Source of the DNA: Ensifer adhaerens
GTDB taxonomy: Bacteria; Pseudomonadota; Alphaproteobacteria; Rhizobiales; Rhizobiaceae
NCBI RefSeq assembly: GCF_002940685.1
Contig: NZ_PNFP01000006.1
Coordinates: 1 to 64,000, forward strand
Direction: 5' to 3'
DNA: 64,000 nucleotides
Shown here: in pieces, positions 3,281 through 11,850 of the stretch
How positions within the stretch are numbered: position 1 is the stretch's first letter
How the letters are laid out: the number at the start of each line of letters is the position of its first letter
The notes under the pieces: model-generated
Databases searched by the model: none
What the model saw: only the letters and a program-made list of their open reading frames with translations
What the model was told of the DNA's origin: nothing
Made by a program: the position numbers and the translations under genes

Positions 3281-3289
3281 GTGATTTCC

Positions 3290-3910
3290 ATGCATGTCCG
3301 CGCCTATCTCCGAGCCAGCACCAAAGACCAAGATGCCAGCCGTGCAAGGGACGACCTGTTTCGCTTCTCTGAAGAGCGCGGGCTGAAGGTAGCGGCATCC
3401 TATGTGGAGAATGAAAGCGGCGCATCCTTGGCCCGGCCTGAACTGTTCCGGCTTCTCTCAGACTGCCACCCCGGCGATGTCCTGCTGGTGGAGCAGGTGG
3501 ACCGACTGAGCCGCTTGAACGCCTCCGACTGGGAAAGACTGAAAGCCGAGATTACATCGCGACGGGTGAAGGTGGTGGCGCTCGACCTGCCCACCTCGTG
3601 GATGATGGCCACGGCTGACAAGGACGACATTCAAAGCCGTATACTGGACGCCATCAACGGAATGATGCTCGACATGCTCGCAGCCATCGCCCGCAAGGAC
3701 TACGAGGATCGCAGGAGACGACAGGCGCAGGGCATCGCCAAGGCAAAGGCTGAAGGCGCCTACAAGGGACGCCCTGAAGACACAGAACGTAACGAGGCCA
3801 TCATGAGGATGCTCCAGACTGGCCAGTCCTGGAACACTATTGTGAATGCCACCGGTTGCTCACGCTCAACCTTGGCGAGGTTGGCTGCAAGAATGAAGAC
3901 GGACGCATGA
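3290..3910 (+). CDS. Serine recombinase, resolvase/invertase family
   Basis: A 206-residue serine recombinase that would cut and rejoin DNA through a 5'-phosphoserine link. The N-terminal catalytic domain shows the YLRASTKDQ box with the nucleophilic serine near residue 9, then VEQVDRLSRL near residue 60, and a long helix (AINGMMLDMLAAIARKDYEDRRRR) typical of the dimer interface. A short C-terminal HTH (GQSWNTIVNATGCSRSTLARL) matches the resolvase DNA-binding domain. I chose the ATG at 3290 because AGGTGA lies just upstream; an in-frame GTG at 3281 is less likely. It resembles small resolvases of plasmids and transposons, but no transposase is visible nearby. The stop is only 13 bases from the convergent gene at 3924. 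Confidence 0.88.
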   Translation: MHVRAYLRASTKDQDASRARDDLFRFSEERGLKVAASYVENESGASLARPELFRLLSDCHPGDVLLVEQVDRLSRLNASDWERLKAEITSRRVKVVALDLPTSWMMATADKDDIQSRILDAINGMMLDMLAAIARKDYEDRRRRQAQGIAKAKAEGAYKGRPEDTERNEAIMRMLQTGQSWNTIVNATGCSRSTLARLAARMKTDA

Positions 3911-3923
3911 AGTCATCAGCTTC

Positions 3924-4598
3924 TCACGCCCGCTCACTTTCGAGGGGGCGATTATGTCTTTTTCGCCGGGCGTTTGACGCCACTGGCCACGGCAGAGTGA
4001 GAGGTCGCTCCGGCAGTTCCCAACGCGTCGGGTCTTTCAGTACGTGGTCACCTACTGGGCGGATTTTTCGCCTCATCGACCCACCCACCTCGTCTTGCAG
4101 CAGTTCCACGAAATCTCTTCGCGATTGCCAGACATGCTGCCTTAACGTTTTTCTGTCCCCTTCCTTCCCGACGGATACATGGCGGGCCACGTAGCAGACC
4201 CTCAGCACGTGATCGAGGACCTTAACGCGGGTTCCCTCGTCATCGTTCTTGCCACCTTTCGCCTTGGCCGAAGGTGTCGACCACCAAGTGAACTGAAGGT
4301 CGAGTAGTCTGCCGCCTCCTTGTTCCTTAACGTTTGGAAAGAACAGCCGCCCCTTGTCGACGAGTGCACTCGCTCTCTGGCTGAGCTTCTCGGTCTCAGC
4401 GGCGCTGTATGTCGTCTCAGGAGATAGTGGAAAGCACGCCGTTTCGATTTCGGCCATGACATCAATCACTTCCTGCCCCCACTGGGTCATCTCGACATCG
4501 CGTTGGCGGCTCGCTGCACGAGAAGTAAAGAACCATTGCGCGAGCGCGACCAAGACGGCAGCCACAGCAGCAATTGAAGCAAGCATGCCCTCAGACAT
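3924..4598 (-). CDS. Membrane-anchored hypothetical protein downstream of hsdR
   Basis: A 224-residue protein with one N-terminal hydrophobic segment (residues about 4-24, MLASIAAVAAVLVALAQWFF) and a long polar, probably cytoplasmic remainder. A GRLFFPN motif near residue 85 is seen in other uncharacterised bacterial proteins, but I cannot name a family. It starts 40 bases after the hsdR stop on the same strand, with an AGGAA ribosome-binding site, so it is probably the last gene of the restriction-modification operon. A role in defence is suggested by position only. The last 40 residues are basic and proline-rich. Confidence 0.65.
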   Translation of the reverse strand: MSEGMLASIAAVAAVLVALAQWFFTSRAASRQRDVEMTQWGQEVIDVMAEIETACFPLSPETTYSAAETEKLSQRASALVDKGRLFFPNVKEQGGGRLLDLQFTWWSTPSAKAKGGKNDDEGTRVKVLDHVLRVCYVARHVSVGKEGDRKTLRQHVWQSRRDFVELLQDEVGGSMRRKIRPVGDHVLKDPTRWELPERPLTLPWPVASNARRKRHNRPLESERA

Positions 4599-4638: not shown

Positions 4639-7600
4639 CTAATGGGCGGCCACTTCCTTCAACAATAACTCGGCCTGCGCCAGCACGGTCTGCACCGCTT
4701 CCTGCTCCAGATCAGGAGGATAGCCGAACTTCTTAAGGATGCGCTTGACCAACACCCGCATCTTGGCCCGAGCGGCTGCCCTATGCTGCCAGTCGACGGT
4801 TACAGACTTGCGCATTTGCTCAACCAGCTCATGCGCGATCACGCGGAGCTGTTCGCTCCCCATGGCTTGGACGGCGCTGTCATTGGCCGCAAGGGCGTCA
4901 TAGAAGGCGACCTCCTCCTGCGTGAGACCCAACTCTTCGCCCCTTGCAGCTGCGGCCTGCATCTCCTTGGCGAGAGCGATCAACTCCTGGATCATCTCGA
5001 CGGTGGAGATCGCGTTGGCGTGGTAGCGCGCTACCGCCTCTTCCAGCCGCTTGGAGAAGGCCTTGGACTGGACGACGTTGGTTTGCGAGCGGCTCCTGAT
5101 CTCGCCATTCAGCAGCTTCTTCAGCGCCTCCAGCGCGAGGTTCTTCTTTTCCATGCGCTGGACATCTGCAAGGAATTCATCCGATAGAACGGAGATATCC
5201 GGCGACTGCAGCCCCGCAGCTTTGAGGATGTCCACGATCTCGGCATTGGCGACAGCTTGGTTCAGCAACTGCTCCACGGCGAGCGACTTGGCCTTGTCCG
5301 ACATCTTGCCGGTGGCAGTCGTCTTCACGAGTGCAGCACGCACCGCCTGGAAGAAGCCGACCTCATCGCGAATTTCGGCTGCGGCATCGCTTGCCGAGGC
5401 CAGCGCATAGGCTTTGCTCAGTTCAAGCACCACGTCCTGGTAGCGGCGGTGGGCCTTCTTTTTCGCCTCAATGCCCTCAACCTTCGCGGCTTCCTTCTCC
5501 TGCCGCTTCAGTATCCAGTCGATACCATTAGCTAATGCCTTCAAGCGCTGCTGCGACGTGCCCACGATGCCGAAGCTATAATCATGACCGTTGAACATGG
5601 CCCGCACGATCTCGTACTTCTCCAGAAGAACGGCAACGGCCTCCTCCTCATCGATGCCCGTCTTATCTCGGTCGGACTGGGAGTATTGCGCCAGCGCCTT
5701 CTTAAGGTTCTGGGCAATACCGATGTAGTCGACAATCAGTCCACCCGGCTTGTCTTTGAAGACGCGATTGACCCGGGCGATCGCCTGCATCAGGCCGTGG
5801 CCGTGCATCGGCTTGTCGATGTACATCGTGTGCATGCAGGGCGCGTCGAAACCGGTCAGCCACATGTCGCGCACGATCACCAGCTTCAGCGGATCATCGA
5901 GGTTGCGGGCTCGCTTGGCGAGATCATCGCGCCGCCTCTTGTTGCCAATGTGGGGCTGCCACTCCAGCGGGTCGGAGGCCGAGCCGGTCATCACGATCTT
6001 GATCGCGCCCTTGTCATCATCGTCCGAATGCCAATCGGGCCGAAGCGCAACGATCTCGTTGTAGAGGTCGACACAGATGCGGCGGCTCATGCAGACAGCC
6101 ATGGCCTTGCCCGGCAAACCTTCAACGCGCTTCTCAAGGTGTGCGACAAGATCGGCAGCGATCTGCGAGAGCCGCTTCTTAGAGCCCACCAACCGCTCGA
6201 CGGTCGTCCATTTGGCCTTCTGTTTCTCCTGCTCGCTGAGGGTATCGTCTTCGAGCATCGCCTCAATCTCGGCATCGATCTTCGGCTTCTCGTCTTCGTT
6301 CAGCTCGATGCGGGCCAGCCGGCTCTCGTAGTAGATGGGGACCGTCGCCTTGTCCTCGACCGCCCGGCTGATGTCGTAGACGTCGATGTATCCGCCGAAG
6401 ATCGCGGGCGTGTTGACGTCGTCCCCCTCGATCGGCGTTCCGGTGAAGCCGATGAAAGAGGCATTCGGCAACGCCTCGCGGATATAGTGCGCGTAGCCAT
6501 AGCGCCGCTTGCCGGTGTCCTTGTCGAGCTTGGCGTCGAACCCGTATTGGCTGCGGTGCGCCTCGTCGGCCATGACGATCACGTTGCGCCGATCCGTCAG
6601 CATCGGGAAGCTTTCCTCGCCCGCCTCGGGCGTGAACTTCTGAACAGTGGTGAAGATTACGCCGCCCGATGCCCGGTTCAAGAGCCGCCGGAGATCGTCC
6701 CGGCTATTGGCCTGTTCCGGTGTCTGGCGGATCAAATCCTTGCACAGGCTGAAGGTGCCGAAAAGCTGGTCATCGAGATCGTTACGGTCGGTCAATACGA
6801 TCAGCGTCGGGTTCTCAAGCTCCCGTGAACGGACGATCAACCCGCCGAGGAACGCCATCAGGAAGCTCTTGCCGGAGCCCTGGGTATGCCAGATCACGCC
6901 GATCTTGCGGTTGCCGTCCGGCTTCGCCGCCTCGATCGCGCTGGTAATCGCCTTGCGGGCACCGTGGAACTGGTGATAGCCACCAATGATCTTGAAGGCA
7001 CCCGCCCCCTGGTCTCCGAACACGATGAAGTCGCGGATGAGCGCAAGGAACCGCTCCTTGTCGAACACCCCCCGCAGCAGCGTATCCATCTCGTAAGGGC
7101 CATGGGGTGTGAAGTCGCCAGCCGCGCCCGTCACAGAGCGCCAGGGCATGAAGCGCTCCTCATCCGCCGTCAGAGAGCCGATGCGGGCGAGCATACCATC
7201 CGAGGCGATCAACACGGCATTGGTGCGGAAGAGCGAGGGTACCTGTGCCTTGTAGGTCTGAAGCTGCTGGAAGGCGTGGTCGATGGTCGCCGCCTCGCTG
7301 CCTGCGTTCTTCAGTTCGATGATGCCGAGTGGCAGACCGTTGACGAAGATCATGACGTCGGGTCGGCGGGTGTACTTGCCCTCGACGACGGTGAACTGGT
7401 TGGTCACGAGCCAGTCGTTGTTCTCGGGGTTATCGAGATCGATCAGCCAGACCTTGTCGCCCTTGACTTCGCCATCGCCGATACCGAACTCAACATCGAC
7501 GCCTTCGGCAATCAGCCTGTGAATGCGCCGGTTTTCCTCCACCAGCGAGGGCGTCTCCGTGACCAGCAATTGTCGGATGGCCTGCTCGCGGGCGTCTGTC

Positions 7601-7830
7601 GGGATTGTCGGGTTCAGCCGCTCAGCAGCAACCCTTAACCGCTCTGCCAGCAGCACATCGCTATAAGCCTCGCGAGCGGGTGAGCTGCCATCGGGAGAGA
7701 TCACCGCTGCATTCTCGTAGGTGTAGCCCAGATCGCGGAAGGTGCCGATCACCGCCTCTTCGACAAGGCCTTCGTTGAAGCCACTCTTGCTGTGTTCGGA
7801 AGCTGACTGCGTGTAGTGGACGTCGTCCAT
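4639..7830 (-). CDS. hsdR: Type I restriction endonuclease subunit R
   Basis: HsdR is the ATP-driven motor and nuclease of a type I restriction complex (R2M2S) that translocates and cleaves unmodified DNA. The 1063-residue protein shows the expected order: an N-terminal nuclease domain with RPDV near residue 158 and ELKN near 173, then Walker A (HTQGSGKS, near 316), the Walker B box DEAH (near 423), the TGTP box, and the late helicase motif ending in QAIARVNR. The length is normal and no key motif is missing. The ATG at 7830 overlaps the stop of the preceding small gene (TGATG), so translation is probably coupled. It is the fifth gene of the hsd operon and likely functional with the hsdM and hsdS upstream. 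Confidence 0.95.
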
Positions 7831-8258
7831 CACCAGACCTCAAAACGTTCAAGGTTGCGCTCACCGGCTCGCTGCAGAAGCGCGGATCGAAACTCTTCTT
7901 TGATCACACCGGCATCGCGACAAGCGGTGCTCAGGTCGTCCACATCAGGGATCGCAGCCAGCCAAAGAGCCTCAAACTCTGCAGCAGTCAGACGCTCGAC
8001 TTCTTTTAGGAGGAAGGCATCCAGAATGCTGTCCCAGGGGTCGCCGTCATCAAAGTGCGGGCCATTTTGTGCATCGTGGCAAAACTCATCCCAAAGGCTC
8101 TTATGGTTGTAGTCGTCACCAAAGATGCCGGAAGAAGGCCGACGCTGAAGGGCGTGGATGATGCGCTGTGCCGCACGCTGATTGTATTCTGCGGCCAGTC
8201 GAAATAAGGCTGATTGAGCTGCCTCGGGCAGATCATAGCAAGCGCTGGGGCTATCCAT
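7830..8258 (-). CDS. Unknown small protein inside the type I RM operon (second of two)
   Basis: A 142-residue soluble, acidic protein between hsdS and hsdR. No family is recognised. It is predicted mostly helical, with an aromatic and acidic middle ([20 protein letters not shown]) and a C-terminal half rich in L and E. Its ATG overlaps the stop of the preceding gene as TGATG, and its own stop overlaps the hsdR start in the same way, so it is translationally coupled on both sides. That arrangement argues it is made together with the restriction enzyme. It could modulate, chaperone or limit HsdR, or be an independent defence component; nothing in the sequence decides between these. Confidence 0.75.
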
Positions 8259-8668
8259 CACTTGGCGCCCCCGCCCTTCACTGCGTCTAGGATGCTGTCC
8301 AGGTCCCTAACTGTTTTCGGCACGAAACGCCACGCGTCCCTGCGATGCAGCCGATCCATTGTCTTCAGGGCAGAGTGACGGCCATATTGCATCCCGCCAT
8401 AGGGACTGGGAACTGAATATGTCTCGCTCCCCGACCGAAACTGCCCTCCCCGCGACAGGGCGTAATGGCGATCTATCGCCCGCGCCTCGCACCATAGCTG
8501 CAGGTTGGCCCCCTTTACTATGATCACCACCTCGACACCTCCGAGCGCAGCATTGGGCATGACATATCGGCGCGCGTGGACGTTCTGATGATTGGACCGA
8601 TGGACCGTAGCCTCCTTGTCCAGTCTCGCGGTTGCCTGCATCTTGATCAGTTCTGCCTGTGCGGTCAC
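8258..8668 (-). CDS. Unknown small protein inside the type I RM operon (first of two)
   Basis: A 136-residue protein of unknown family directly after hsdS. Its GTG start at 8668 overlaps the hsdS stop (GTGA), and its stop overlaps the next gene (TGATG). The first 35 residues are charged and helical ([18 protein letters not shown]). The middle has a strand-rich look (VEVVIIVKGANLQLW), followed by a glycine- and tyrosine-rich stretch (YSVPSPYGGMQYGRHSAL) and a basic C-terminal helix with DAWRFVPKTVRDLDSILD. It is slightly basic and might bind nucleic acid, which is only a guess. Position makes it a candidate accessory subunit of the restriction system. Confidence 0.75.
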   Translation of the reverse strand: MTAQAELIKMQATARLDKEATVHRSNHQNVHARRYVMPNAALGGVEVVIIVKGANLQLWCEARAIDRHYALSRGGQFRSGSETYSVPSPYGGMQYGRHSALKTMDRLHRRDAWRFVPKTVRDLDSILDAVKGGGAK

Positions 8669-10065
8669 TGCGCCGCCTCCAACCGTTCTTCTGTTTCCGA
8701 AAGGCGAATTTCGCCTGAAATCAGCTTCGGCAGGAGGAGATCGCGGGTAGCGCCGAGGGTCTGGATTTGTCGATTATTGACGCTCTGGAGTAAGCAGAGG
8801 CTTTGAACGATTTTTGAAAACTCAAGCGCAACCTCATCCGACGAATGCAGAAATGGCATTGCATTAAGAGTAGAGGTGTTGAGGTTTGGCATAGTTGCGC
8901 CGATCGCCCGAGAGCGTATCCACTCGACCATAGCCGGTTGATCAAGCCAATAGTATAAAAACTCTGCAGGCATTGCGCTCGCTGGAAAACGCACCTTTAG
9001 ACAACCAGTTCCGCACAACCATCCCGCTTGATCGTCGCCGATTAGTGCCTTGCGCCCAATGTCACCCCTTCGCCCATACACGATGTCCCCTTTTGCCAAG
9101 CGGTGCTTCGCAAGGCGATTGGCTGTGTCTTCGGCAACATAAGCAAACTCACTGTTATCTCGAAAACCAGAATAGGTCAGGTTTGCGGGCATCACCACCG
9201 GAACGCCTAAAGCGCAATAGTCTGCTTGGTGCAACTGACTGCCAAATGGTCCTGTTTGAATAACTCCTGAAACACGAGAAGCTACCTCGTTCAACGTGCC
9301 GTACGACCACCCCTCCGGCAGCCCATCATCTCCAAGCTTGGTCGGGAAGAGGTCGGCGAGCTGCTGCGCCCGGTCGGCATCGATGACGAGGCCGCCCATG
9401 ATTTCGACGGGATCGGACACGCCTTCGATTTTGCGGAGCGTGGGGCCAAAATCGACGAACCAGTCGCGGAAGATCGCCTGCGCCATCGCCTCCAGCGTTT
9501 CGTTCATCCGCCGGTTCAGTTCGATCTTGTCGTCGAGGGAGCCGAGGAGCTCCGCGATTTCCACCTGACGATCGCGGTCAGGAACAGGAATGCGCCACTG
9601 AGATGCGAAGTCGGTGTACTGAAAACGAGCCACACCGGTGTGCTGAATGTGGTAGGGCAGCATTTCCCGCGTTTCATAGATCGACTGAAGATACCAGTAG
9701 AGGTATCGAGGATCGATCAAGCCCTGCTTCACTCGCAGAAATCGACTGAAGCTCGCGCAGGTTAACGGGACTTCTCTTGCGGCAAATCGCTTCTCGGACA
9801 GATAGACGGTACGACCAGTCGGCTGGTCCTTAGTGCCACCGGCAGTTTCAAGCAAAATGTCACCTGGCTGCAGTACCTTCCGTCCAGCTATTTTCTCGGG
9901 AATGAAACGGGTGGGAACTGAAGAAAAATCGCCGTACCGTACGGCCCCAAAGTCGGTACCACGAATGACGGCCATCTCGACCAACCCGTCTCCCGGTTCG
10001 CCCTTACCCCACTCTCCATCGCGCGTGTATTCCAGAAGGTCTTGCAACAGGAAAAGGTCAGCCAT
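8665..10065 (-). CDS. hsdS: Type I restriction-modification specificity subunit S
   Basis: HsdS determines the split DNA target of a type I restriction-modification complex through two target-recognition domains separated by conserved helical spacers. Two such halves are visible in 466 residues. The first ends with [20 protein letters not shown] and the spacer helix [19 protein letters not shown]; the second ends with a similar helix near the C terminus that closes in [11 protein letters not shown]. The ATG at 10065 lies within the last codons of hsdM, giving an eight-base overlap (ATGGCTGA), so I prefer it over the longer frame to 10119. The 3' end overlaps the following small gene. No repeats or second hsdS copy suggestive of phase variation are seen. 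Confidence 0.93.
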
Positions 10066-11611
10066 TGGCCCTCTCCAAGAGTGACGAGACCTGACTTTCG
10101 AGCTTTTGCCCCTCCTCAAACTGCCTGATCAACGTCTCCCTCAGTCCCTCGAATTTCTCCGCAAACGAGACGCCATCGTCTTCGGCATCCGCCGCGCCGA
10201 CATAGCGCCCCGGTGTCAACACATGACCGTGCGAGTGCACCTCCTCCAAGGTCGCCGACTTGCAGAAGCCCGGCTCGTCCTGATAGTCCGCCCAGCCGTT
10301 CTTTTCGCGCGCCTCCGGTTTTGCCCGCCAGCGATGATAGACCCCGGCAATCTTCTCGATGTCCTCGTTGGTGAACTCGCGTCGAACGCGATCCACCATG
10401 AAGCCGAGCTTGCGGGCGTCGATGAAGAGGATTTCGCCGCGCCGGTCGCGGTGGCCATTGGCGCTCTTGTCACGGGCGAGTATCCACAAGCAGGCGGGTA
10501 TCTGCGTCGAGAAGAACAGTTGTCCCGGTAGTGCGACCATGCAGTCCACCTGATCGGCCTCGATCATCGCCTTGCGGATGTCACCCTCGCCCGACTGCTG
10601 CGAGGACATCGAGCCGTTTGCGAGAACCACTCCCGCCGTGCCGCGAGGGGCGAGATGATGGATGATGTGCTGCAGCCAGCCGAAGTTGGCATTGCCCTTG
10701 GGAGGCACGCCGAACTTCCAACGCGCATCCTCCGCCAGCCGCTCACCGCCCCAGTCGGAAATGTTGAAGGGCGGGTTGGCAAGGATGAAGTCGGCTTTCA
10801 GGTCCGGCAGTTCGTCGCGATGGAAGCTGCCCTCGTTGTTCCATCGGATATCGGCATCGATACCCTGCACGGCGAGGTTCATCTTTGCGAGGCGCCACGT
10901 GGTGTGATTGATCTCTTGCCCATAAATGGCGATGTCGTTTCGCCGTCCGCCGTGCTCCTCGATGAACTTCTCTGACTGCACGAACATACCGCCCGAGCCG
11001 CAGCAGGGATCATAGACGCGTCCCTTATATGGCTCCAGCAGCTCGACCAGCGTCCGCACCACAGAGCGGGGAGTGAAGAACTCGCCACCACGCTTGCCCT
11101 CGGAGCTGGCAAAACCCGATAGGAAGTACTCGTAAACGCGGCCAAGCAGGTCCTTGGCCTTGTCCGAACTGTCATGCATGCCGATGTTGGAGAACAGATC
11201 GATAAGCTCGCCGAGCATCGTCTTGTTCAGCGTCGGCCGAGCGTAGTTCTTCGGCAGCACACCCTTCAGCCCCTCGTTGGACGGGGCCTTCTCGATGGCC
11301 TCCATCGCCTCATCGATCAGCTTTCCGACCTCCGGGCGCTTGGCGTTGGCCTGCAGGAAGCCCCAGCGAGCCTCCTTCGGCACCCAGAAGACGTTCTCGG
11401 CAAGATACTCCTCCGGGTCTTCCGCATCCGCGTACTCATCCGCGTCGAGCTTGGCATGCAGCCCCTCGAAGGCATCGGAGATATATTTCAGGAAGATGAG
11501 GCCGAGAGCGACGTGCTTGTACTCCGACGGCTCCAGATTGCCCCGGAGTTTATCCGCCGCTTTAAAAAGCTCAGCCGTGAAGCTGAGGTCACCATTTACT
11601 TCTTTCGCCAC
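10058..11611 (-). CDS. hsdM: Type I restriction-modification methyltransferase subunit M
   Basis: HsdM is the N6-adenine DNA methyltransferase subunit that modifies the type I target together with HsdS. The 517-residue protein has the N-terminal helical domain ([20 protein letters not shown]), then SAM-binding motif I ([10 protein letters not shown], residues 201-210) and the catalytic NPPF motif (279-282), in the order of gamma-class N6 methyltransferases. Length is typical. The start is a GTG at 11611 with a GGGGG run upstream; no ATG is nearby. It is the first gene of the operon, 164 bases from the 3' end of tRNA-Gln, so the operon promoter must lie between the two. Confidence 0.95.
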
Positions 11612-11775: not shown

Positions 11776-11850
11776 TGGCTGGGGCGCCAGGATTCGAACC
11801 TGGGAATGCCGGTACCAAAAACCGGTGCCTTACCGCTTGGCGACGCCCCA
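11776..11850 (-). tRNA. tRNA-Gln, anticodon UUG
   Basis: Read on the minus strand, a 75-base cloverleaf is visible: acceptor stem TGGGGCG pairing with CGCCCCA, a D-arm, an anticodon stem ACCGG/CCGGT with loop TTTTGGT giving anticodon TTG, a T-arm with GGTTCGAATCC, and an encoded CCA end at 11776-11778. Its 3' end faces the accessory region, the usual orientation when an element has integrated into a tRNA gene. Confidence 0.97.

What the first reader, a model, noticed from the sequence alone, without database searches (positions are those of the whole stretch)
7830..8668. Two unknown, translationally coupled genes between hsdS and hsdR
Two small proteins (136 and 142 residues) of no family I recognise are inserted in a type I restriction-modification operon with stop-start overlaps (GTGA, TGATG, TGATG) on all sides. 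Such strict coupling suggests they are made in fixed ratio with HsdS and HsdR and could be accessory subunits, regulators that restrain restriction, or a separate defence module carried inside the operon. Overlaps are seen directly; function is inferred.
Basis: partly seen in the sequence, partly recalled or inferred. Interest (0 to 1): 0.75.

Follow-up and report, generated by a model that had tools for sequence, protein, structure and literature searches.

The report
Two swappable passenger genes in hsdS–hsdR
Two small bacterial genes of unrecognised families sit between two genes of a DNA-cutting defence operon; relatives show that this spot carries exchangeable passenger genes, so they are more likely add-on defence genes than parts of the cutting enzyme, and one of them belongs to a recurring family of unknown fold.

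Summary
On the minus strand the order is hsdM–hsdS–A136–B142–hsdR with 4-, 1- and 1-base overlaps. Neither protein has an acceptable match in Pfam, NCBIfam, PADLOC, PHROGs or PDB sequences. B142 is a real gene: in one pair of relatives dN/dS is 0.16 in frame, 1.4–1.7 in the other forward frames.

They are not core subunits of this enzyme. The closest HsdR found (86%, Rhizobium johnstonii) carries an FRG-domain gene instead, and related operons carry SIR2, Fic, DUF4268, GmrSD_N, BstXI-like or Abi_C genes, or nothing. B142 without A136 follows hsdS in five other operons; A136 without B142 lies between hsdS and hsdR on a Roseomonas plasmid. On the HsdR tree B142 needs at least three gains or losses. 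Four-base overlaps also join hsdS to unrelated cargo, so coupling does not show a fixed-ratio complex.

These are new families in a known place, the hsdS–hsdR interval (RloF, TgvAB, DarTG2). B142 is acidic, confidently predicted all-helical, without structural match; it often precedes a restriction or defence gene, so a partner or brake role is my best, unproven guess.

The parts
10058..11611 (-). hsdM, type I modification subunit (GTG start)
   Evidence: Pfam HsdM_N and N6_Mtase; 8-nt overlap with hsdS if hsdS starts at the ATG at 10065, as annotated in R. johnstonii pRL11
8665..10065 (-). hsdS, specificity subunit (ATG at 10065; mechanical ORF from TTG at 10119)
   Evidence: Methylase_S, 2 stretches; PADLOC Specificity_I E 2e-86
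8258..8668 (-). A136: basic 136-aa protein (pI 10.1) of an unnamed family; elsewhere the C-terminal domain of a DEDDh exonuclease, or a gene without B142 between hsdS and hsdR
7830..8258 (-). B142: acidic 142-aa protein (pI 4.5), predicted all-helical, of an unnamed family that recurs directly after hsdS and in other defence gene clusters
4639..7830 (-). hsdR, restriction subunit (ATG at 7830; GTG at 7833 also possible)
   Evidence: HSDR_N, SWI2_SNF2, T1R_D3-like, T1RH-like_C; TIGR00348 595 bits
7830..8668 (-). cargo interval between hsdS and hsdR, occupied by an FRG-domain gene in the closest relative found
   Evidence: nucleotide match to R. johnstonii pRL11 stops in the hsdS 3' end and resumes about 50 nt inside hsdR
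11776..11850 (-). tRNA-Gln just upstream of hsdM, at the edge of a lower-G+C segment
   Evidence: ARAGORN; G+C 0.54-0.61 for 1-12 kb, 0.65-0.66 for 12-19 kb, 0.58 again at 19-20 kb

Best explanation
A136 and B142 are two independently acquired accessory ('R-linked') genes lodged in the hsdS-hsdR interval of a type I restriction operon, a site that in relatives is loaded with exchangeable defence-type genes. They are coupled by overlap to hsdS and hsdR because that is how the site is built, not because they are enzyme subunits (supported by comparison). Mechanism, inferred: B142 is a small acidic helical partner protein, made immediately before a nuclease or other effector, that holds that effector in check or delivers it to its target until infection is sensed; here the next gene is hsdR, in relatives GmrSD_N, DUF4268, HNH or a PADLOC candidate gene. 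A136 is a basic nucleic-acid-binding module, which elsewhere serves as the C-terminal arm of a DEDDh exonuclease.
For: Same interval, different cargo, in the nearest HsdR relatives found: FRG (HsdR 86% identical), pentapeptide + DUF6615 + DUF4268 (70%), SIR2 (65%), BstXI-like (64%). DNA similarity to R. johnstonii ends in hsdS and resumes in hsdR. B142 needs at least 3 gains/losses on the HsdR tree; P. yeei and genome G1055 are HsdR sisters with the same DUF4268 cargo (66% identical), with B142 present in the first and absent from the second. B142 lies just 5' of a restriction or defence gene in 7 of 11 loci: hsdR 2 (window, L002), GmrSD_N 2 (L008, L009), DUF4268 1 (L028), HNH 1 (L027), PADLOC candidate S19/S11 1 (L010, after a gap of 63 bases). 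All 10 members of alignment A6 are acidic, pI 4.3-5.2, and the 11th, P0011, has pI 4.05; as a rough control, 1 of 16 ORFs of 100-200 aa picked in the window is as acidic as -0.06 charges per residue. Confident helical model, pLDDT 82, pTM 0.74. A136 domain fused to an RNase_T exonuclease 207 bases upstream of hsdM-hsdS-hsdR in G084.
Against: No activity, binding or phage phenotype was tested. In 4 of 11 B142 loci (L007, L024, L044, L045) no recognised effector follows directly, and around L024 I saw no defence gene by eye. B142 is mildly clustered on the HsdR tree (25 of 500 shuffles as low), so some vertical descent with the enzyme is not excluded. The acid charge is modest for a DNA mimic (L008 net -5). 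The A136 model is unreliable (pLDDT 51), so 'nucleic-acid binding' rests on charge and fusion only. No exonuclease of the fused kind was found elsewhere in the own genome at E 0.001, so A136 has no evident partner in trans.
Confidence: 0.55

Rival explanations
1. Both are genuine accessory subunits or dedicated regulators of this HsdRMS enzyme, e.g. a brake that restrains HsdR until the host genome is methylated.
For: Stop-start overlaps on all sides; B142 directly follows hsdS in five relatives and is the only gene between hsdS and hsdR in Croceicoccus; acidic charge could mimic DNA.
Against: Nearest HsdR relatives found lack both; B142 also occurs with a DISARM/Dpd-like helicase-methylase cluster, after a KAP NTPase, and without any defence gene in view; overlaps are seen with unrelated cargo.
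Confidence: 0.22
2. A136 and B142 together form one two-gene defence or toxin-antitoxin unit (basic plus acidic partner).
For: Adjacent, overlapping, opposite charge (pI 10.1 and 4.5); two-gene embedded systems such as TgvAB and DarTG2 are known in type I operons (PMC11411939, PMC12255303, abstracts and passages seen).
Against: They were found together only in the window: 1 of 11 B142 loci and 1 of 5 A136 loci (tblastn on loci; on plasmids).
Confidence: 0.15
3. Decaying leftovers of recombination at the site without present function.
For: The Roseomonas copy of A136 lies in a frameshifted operon and is itself broken; the families are rare.
Against: Frames in the window are intact; B142 dN/dS 0.16 in one pair of relatives; invariant motif at about 22-36% identity to the window protein.
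Confidence: 0.06

Closest known systems
R-linked ORFs (Rlo genes, RloF) between hsdS and hsdR of Campylobacter jejuni type I loci
   Same: Unrelated accessory genes between hsdS and hsdR of a type I operon (name and position from passages of PMC4619093; the original paper it cites was not seen)
   Different: RloF is a DUF262/GmrS protein; neither A136 nor B142 matches that domain, although B142 stands beside a GmrSD_N gene in two operons
TgvAB, GmrSD-type two-gene system embedded in the Vibrio cholerae VPI-2 type I operon
   Same: Two genes of once-unknown function inside a type I operon (PMC11411939, abstract and passages seen)
   Different: TgvA and TgvB have DUF262/DUF1524 domains and need each other; A136 and B142 lack these and occur apart
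[quoted passage not shown]
   Same: Same interval, described there as a potential recombination hotspot (PMC12255303, abstract and passages seen)
   Different: Different families; no regulator of the RptR kind was looked for here
PrrC anticodon nuclease in the ecoprrI locus
   Same: Accessory gene embedded in a type I locus, activated when restriction is inhibited (PMC12707154, passage seen)
   Different: PrrC is a tRNA nuclease; A136 and B142 have no family match
PADLOC candidate PDC-S48 / DEDDh exonuclease
   Same: The A136-type domain is the C-terminal part of P0007, whose N-terminal part matches DEDDh and PDC-S48
   Different: In the window the domain stands alone, with no exonuclease part

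Membership tests
R-linked ORF / embedded accessory gene of a type I restriction operon | Intact gene between hsdS and hsdR, same strand | tested here: met
R-linked ORF / embedded accessory gene of a type I restriction operon | Not shared by close relatives of the same enzyme; replaced by other genes | tested here: met
   a part of the relatives found was opened (12 of 60 listed of 182 plasmid records, plus 3 genomes)
R-linked ORF / embedded accessory gene of a type I restriction operon | Own anti-phage or regulatory function | not testable with these tools
   needs phage assays
Core HsdRMS subunit | Present with the enzyme throughout its close relatives | tested here: not met
   absent from the R. 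johnstonii (86%) and G1081 (70%) operons
GmrSD / RloF | DUF262 and/or DUF1524 domain | tested here: not met
   no such Pfam match in either protein
DEDDh exonuclease (PDC-S48 type) | RNase_T exonuclease domain | tested here: not met
   A136 aligns only with the C-terminal part of P0007/P0008 and has no RNase_T match
Known small helical toxin or other protein of solved structure (HEPN and the like) | Structural match of the B142 model to a solved structure | tested here: not met
   Foldseek: 43 PDB matches at E up to 10, best E 1.2, none at 0.001 or less; a second aligner was not available
DNA-mimic antirestriction protein (Ocr, ArdA; named from memory) | Strong acidity and sequence or fold similarity | tested here: inconclusive
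   pI 4.3-5.2 but no sequence or fold match

The most novel reading that the evidence does not exclude
B142 founds a class of acidic helical 'safety-catch' proteins of new fold, translated just ahead of nucleases of unrelated kinds (HsdR, GmrSD, DUF4268, HNH) in mobile defence operons, so that one exchangeable cassette controls many different effectors.
Probability: 0.15. Interest if true: 0.8.

Novelty: new member of a known kind. Interest (0 to 1): 0.42.

Why it matters
The hsdS–hsdR interval is a known lodging site for defence genes. This adds two unnamed families to it, one of them (B142) with a confident helical model that matches no solved structure searched, a sharp sequence motif and a habit of preceding different effectors. 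Its presence or absence in sister operons makes a clean test possible: the same enzyme and cargo with and without the gene.

Tried and rejected
Rejected hits: L011–L017 (MAGs of Oscillospiraceae, Clostridia and one unnamed bacterium), 7 of the 11 loci. In all seven the match lies in a protein of about 450-474 aa that begins like a beta-glucosidase (naming recalled) and shares only a WDEFCH stretch (L015, the other six). L026 (G010, E 2e-4): the region reads as a glycerol-3-phosphate-dehydrogenase-like protein (naming recalled), and tblastn of A136 against L026 gave nothing at E 1. All were dropped before counting.

Led nowhere: viral-contig scans for B142 and A136 (no relatives); phage records with P0009 and the L007 protein (no match); A136 in plasmids by its own sequence (none); plasmids with the G757 protein (none); PDB profile searches (none; best E 0.58); structure of A136 (pLDDT 51; no fold search made); fold search of B142 in PDB and BFVD (best E 1.2 and 0.57). 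A repeat of the tRNA end that would mark an island edge was not found in the window (only 11-12-base matches). Distribution is sparse: B142 in 1 of 249 (order), 2 of 385 (class), 3 of 329 (phylum) genomes, each count including the own genome, and in 1 of 5 and 1 of 28 genomes around G722 and G608, these two counts including the centre itself; A136 in 4 of 249, 1 of 385, 2 of 41 (one false) and 1 of 170, own genome included.

Considered and rejected: B142 as a HEPN-type toxin (no fold match); fixed stoichiometry deduced from overlaps; A136 and B142 as an obligate pair.

Full report
Anatomy. The operon runs on the minus strand: hsdM 11611–10058, hsdS 10065 (or TTG 10119)–8665, A136 8668–8258, B142 8258–7830, hsdR 7830–4639. 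The flanking genes carry the expected type I domains. A136 and B142 have no acceptable match in Pfam, NCBIfam, PADLOC, PHROGs or PDB sequences (the best sub-threshold hit is MRP-S27 for B142, E 0.0029, 17 bits against a cut-off of 25.9). Third-position G+C is 0.78–0.80 in hsdM and hsdR, but 0.60, 0.69 and 0.56 in hsdS, A136 and B142, as expected for a part with its own history.

Relatives of B142. I count 11 loci, the window included: Croceicoccus plasmid (L002), Rhodospirillales MAG (L007), Erythrobacter (L008), Citromicrobium (L009), Ancylobacter (L010), genome G608 (L019/L024), Paracoccus marcusii plasmid (L027), P. yeei plasmid (L028), G722 (L044) and G757 (L045). The scan gave 11 loci, of which 4 are kept (L007–L010) and 7 (L011–L017) dropped as false. 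G757 is the most distant member (28% over 80 residues to B142). In an alignment of 10 of the 11 (P0011 of L027 left out), G48, W57, D58, E59 and A132 are invariant, and R40, G45, C61, G67, E95 and L99 are kept in 9 of 10. In a nine-row alignment with P0011 but without G722 and G757, G45, W57-D58-E59, G67 and A132 are invariant and G48 is not.

Contexts of B142. In the window it lies between A136 and hsdR; in L002 it is the only gene between hsdS and hsdR; in L008 and L009 it is followed by a GmrSD_N (DUF262) gene and then hsdR; in L028 by DUF4268 and hsdR; in L010 it follows hsdS and is followed, 63 bases on, by a gene matching PADLOC candidates S19/S11, after which the contig ends. Elsewhere: L027, in a cluster of two annotated helicases (the one scanned is DpdE/DrmD-like) and a DrmMI-like methylase, overlapping an HNH gene by 4 bases; L044, about 2.6 kb from an hsdR; L045, after a KAP NTPase matching PDC-S20; L007, after a 277-aa gene of no Pfam family and 2.6 kb from a Methylase_S protein; L024, with no defence gene that I could see nearby.

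Relatives of A136. Five loci: the window; [quoted passage not shown] and three genomes (G084, G119, G197) where it is the C-terminal domain of an exonuclease (RNase_T E 5e-17 for G084 and 2e-13 for G197; the G119 protein reads the same as that of G197). In G084 that fusion gene stands 207 bases before hsdM–hsdS–hsdR of a more distant type I system. In G119 and G197 tblastn found no hsd gene in the 12 and 16 kb fetched. Only the window holds both families among the loci tested (plasmid searches).

The interval as a cargo site. HsdR relatives were found on 182 plasmid records (60 listed). I opened 12 of the listed ones, chosen for spread; 11 have hsdS upstream (the Deinococcus record has not). 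Between hsdS and hsdR these 11 hold, as annotated or as scanned: FRG; SIR2; a BstXI-like gene (hsdS there by Pfam); an IS5 transposase; nothing (Acetobacter ascendens); nothing (Priestia); Fic; PDDEXK nuclease domain gene + LprI; an ATP-binding protein; DUF6883 + DUF4926 + one unknown; DUF4268. Three of 151 genomes of the window's family, besides its own, have an HsdR at E 1e-200 or better; their intervals hold pentapeptide + DUF6615 + DUF4268, DUF4268, and Abi_C. Four-base overlaps with hsdS occur with Fic, PDDEXK, ATP-binding and BstXI-like cargo and with hsdR itself; other junctions have gaps, up to 108 bases. Overlap therefore says nothing special about A136 and B142.

Gain and loss. In DNA, the window and R. 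johnstonii pRL11 match at 83% in hsdM, 80% in two parts of hsdS (the second ending 34 bases before its stop), and 78% from about 50 bases inside hsdR; nothing matches between. On an HsdR tree of 20 rows the window's sister is R. johnstonii (support 100/100), and the 5 B142-bearing rows need at least three changes; 25 of 500 shuffles were as low, so the label is mildly clustered, as the Croceicoccus–Erythrobacter–Citromicrobium clade shows. P. yeei (L028) and G1055 (L052) are sisters (100/100) with DUF4268 proteins 66% identical; hsdS–DUF4268 is 108 bases apart in G1055, while P. yeei has B142 there. The tree has long branches (L034, L035, L039, L053), which do not touch these pairs. L010, L021 and L022 were not in the tree.

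Coding and selection. L008 and L009 B142 differ at 49 of 390 bases; dN/dS is 0.16 in frame and 1.73 and 1.39 in the two other forward frames. This is one pair; no close pair was available for the window copies or for A136.

Structure. Foldseek gave 43 PDB and 139 BFVD matches with E up to 10, none at 0.001 or less; a second structural aligner was not available. A136 modelled from 3 sequences is unreliable.

Mechanism. Supported by comparison: cargo in an exchangeable site; B142 acidic in all 11 members; B142 just 5' of a restriction or defence gene in 7 of 11 loci. Inferred: coupling of translation; B142 as a partner or brake of the effector that follows; A136 as a nucleic-acid-binding arm that lost or never had an exonuclease. 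No exonuclease of that kind was found elsewhere in the window's genome at E 0.001. The acidity of B142 and basicity of A136 invite a pair model, but their separate distribution speaks against it.

Setting. The operon starts 164 bases from tRNA-Gln (11776–11850), where G+C steps from 0.54–0.61 to 0.65–0.66 (it falls to 0.58 again at 19–20 kb); a resolvase gene lies at 3281–3910. This looks like the end of a tRNA-linked island, but no repeat of the tRNA end was found in the window.

Literature. The interval is known as a lodging site: RloF 'R-linked ORF' (passages of PMC4619093), TgvAB (abstract and passages of PMC11411939), DarTG2 and a putative RNA-binding protein/ATPase pair (abstract and passages of PMC12255303), PrrC (passage of PMC12707154, which says embedded in the locus, not where). 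I found no description of A136 or B142; the searches behind this were made, which searched words, not sequences, in one open-licence library.

Filing check. Searches were made after the first attempt to file; they confirmed the false hits and the domain labels used above.

Noticed in passing
window 3281-3910 (+): Site-specific recombinase (Pfam Resolvase and HTH_7) downstream of the hsd operon, in the lower-G+C segment.
   Followed up: partly
window 3924-4598 (-): 224-aa protein of no Pfam family 40 bases after hsdR on the same strand; may be a further cargo gene.
   Followed up: partly
window 11776-11850 (-) and about 12000: tRNA-Gln at a G+C step (about 0.58 to 0.65), suggesting a tRNA-linked island that carries the hsd operon.
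   Followed up: partly
L022:6635-9195: Three genes before a type I operon in genome G084: 320-aa unknown, 192-aa unknown that looks like a GIY-YIG/T5orf172 protein (recalled; no Pfam match), and the DEDDh exonuclease with the A136 domain.
   Followed up: partly
L045:5964-7858: KAP NTPase matching PADLOC candidate PDC-S20 followed by a B142-like gene; possibly a two-gene form of that candidate.
   Followed up: partly
L031:4815-5990: BstXI-like restriction endonuclease gene inside a type I operon on a Klebsiella plasmid, overlapping hsdS by 4 bases.
   Followed up: no
L021:4831-12577: Type I operon of a Roseomonas mucosa plasmid broken by several frameshifts.
   Followed up: no
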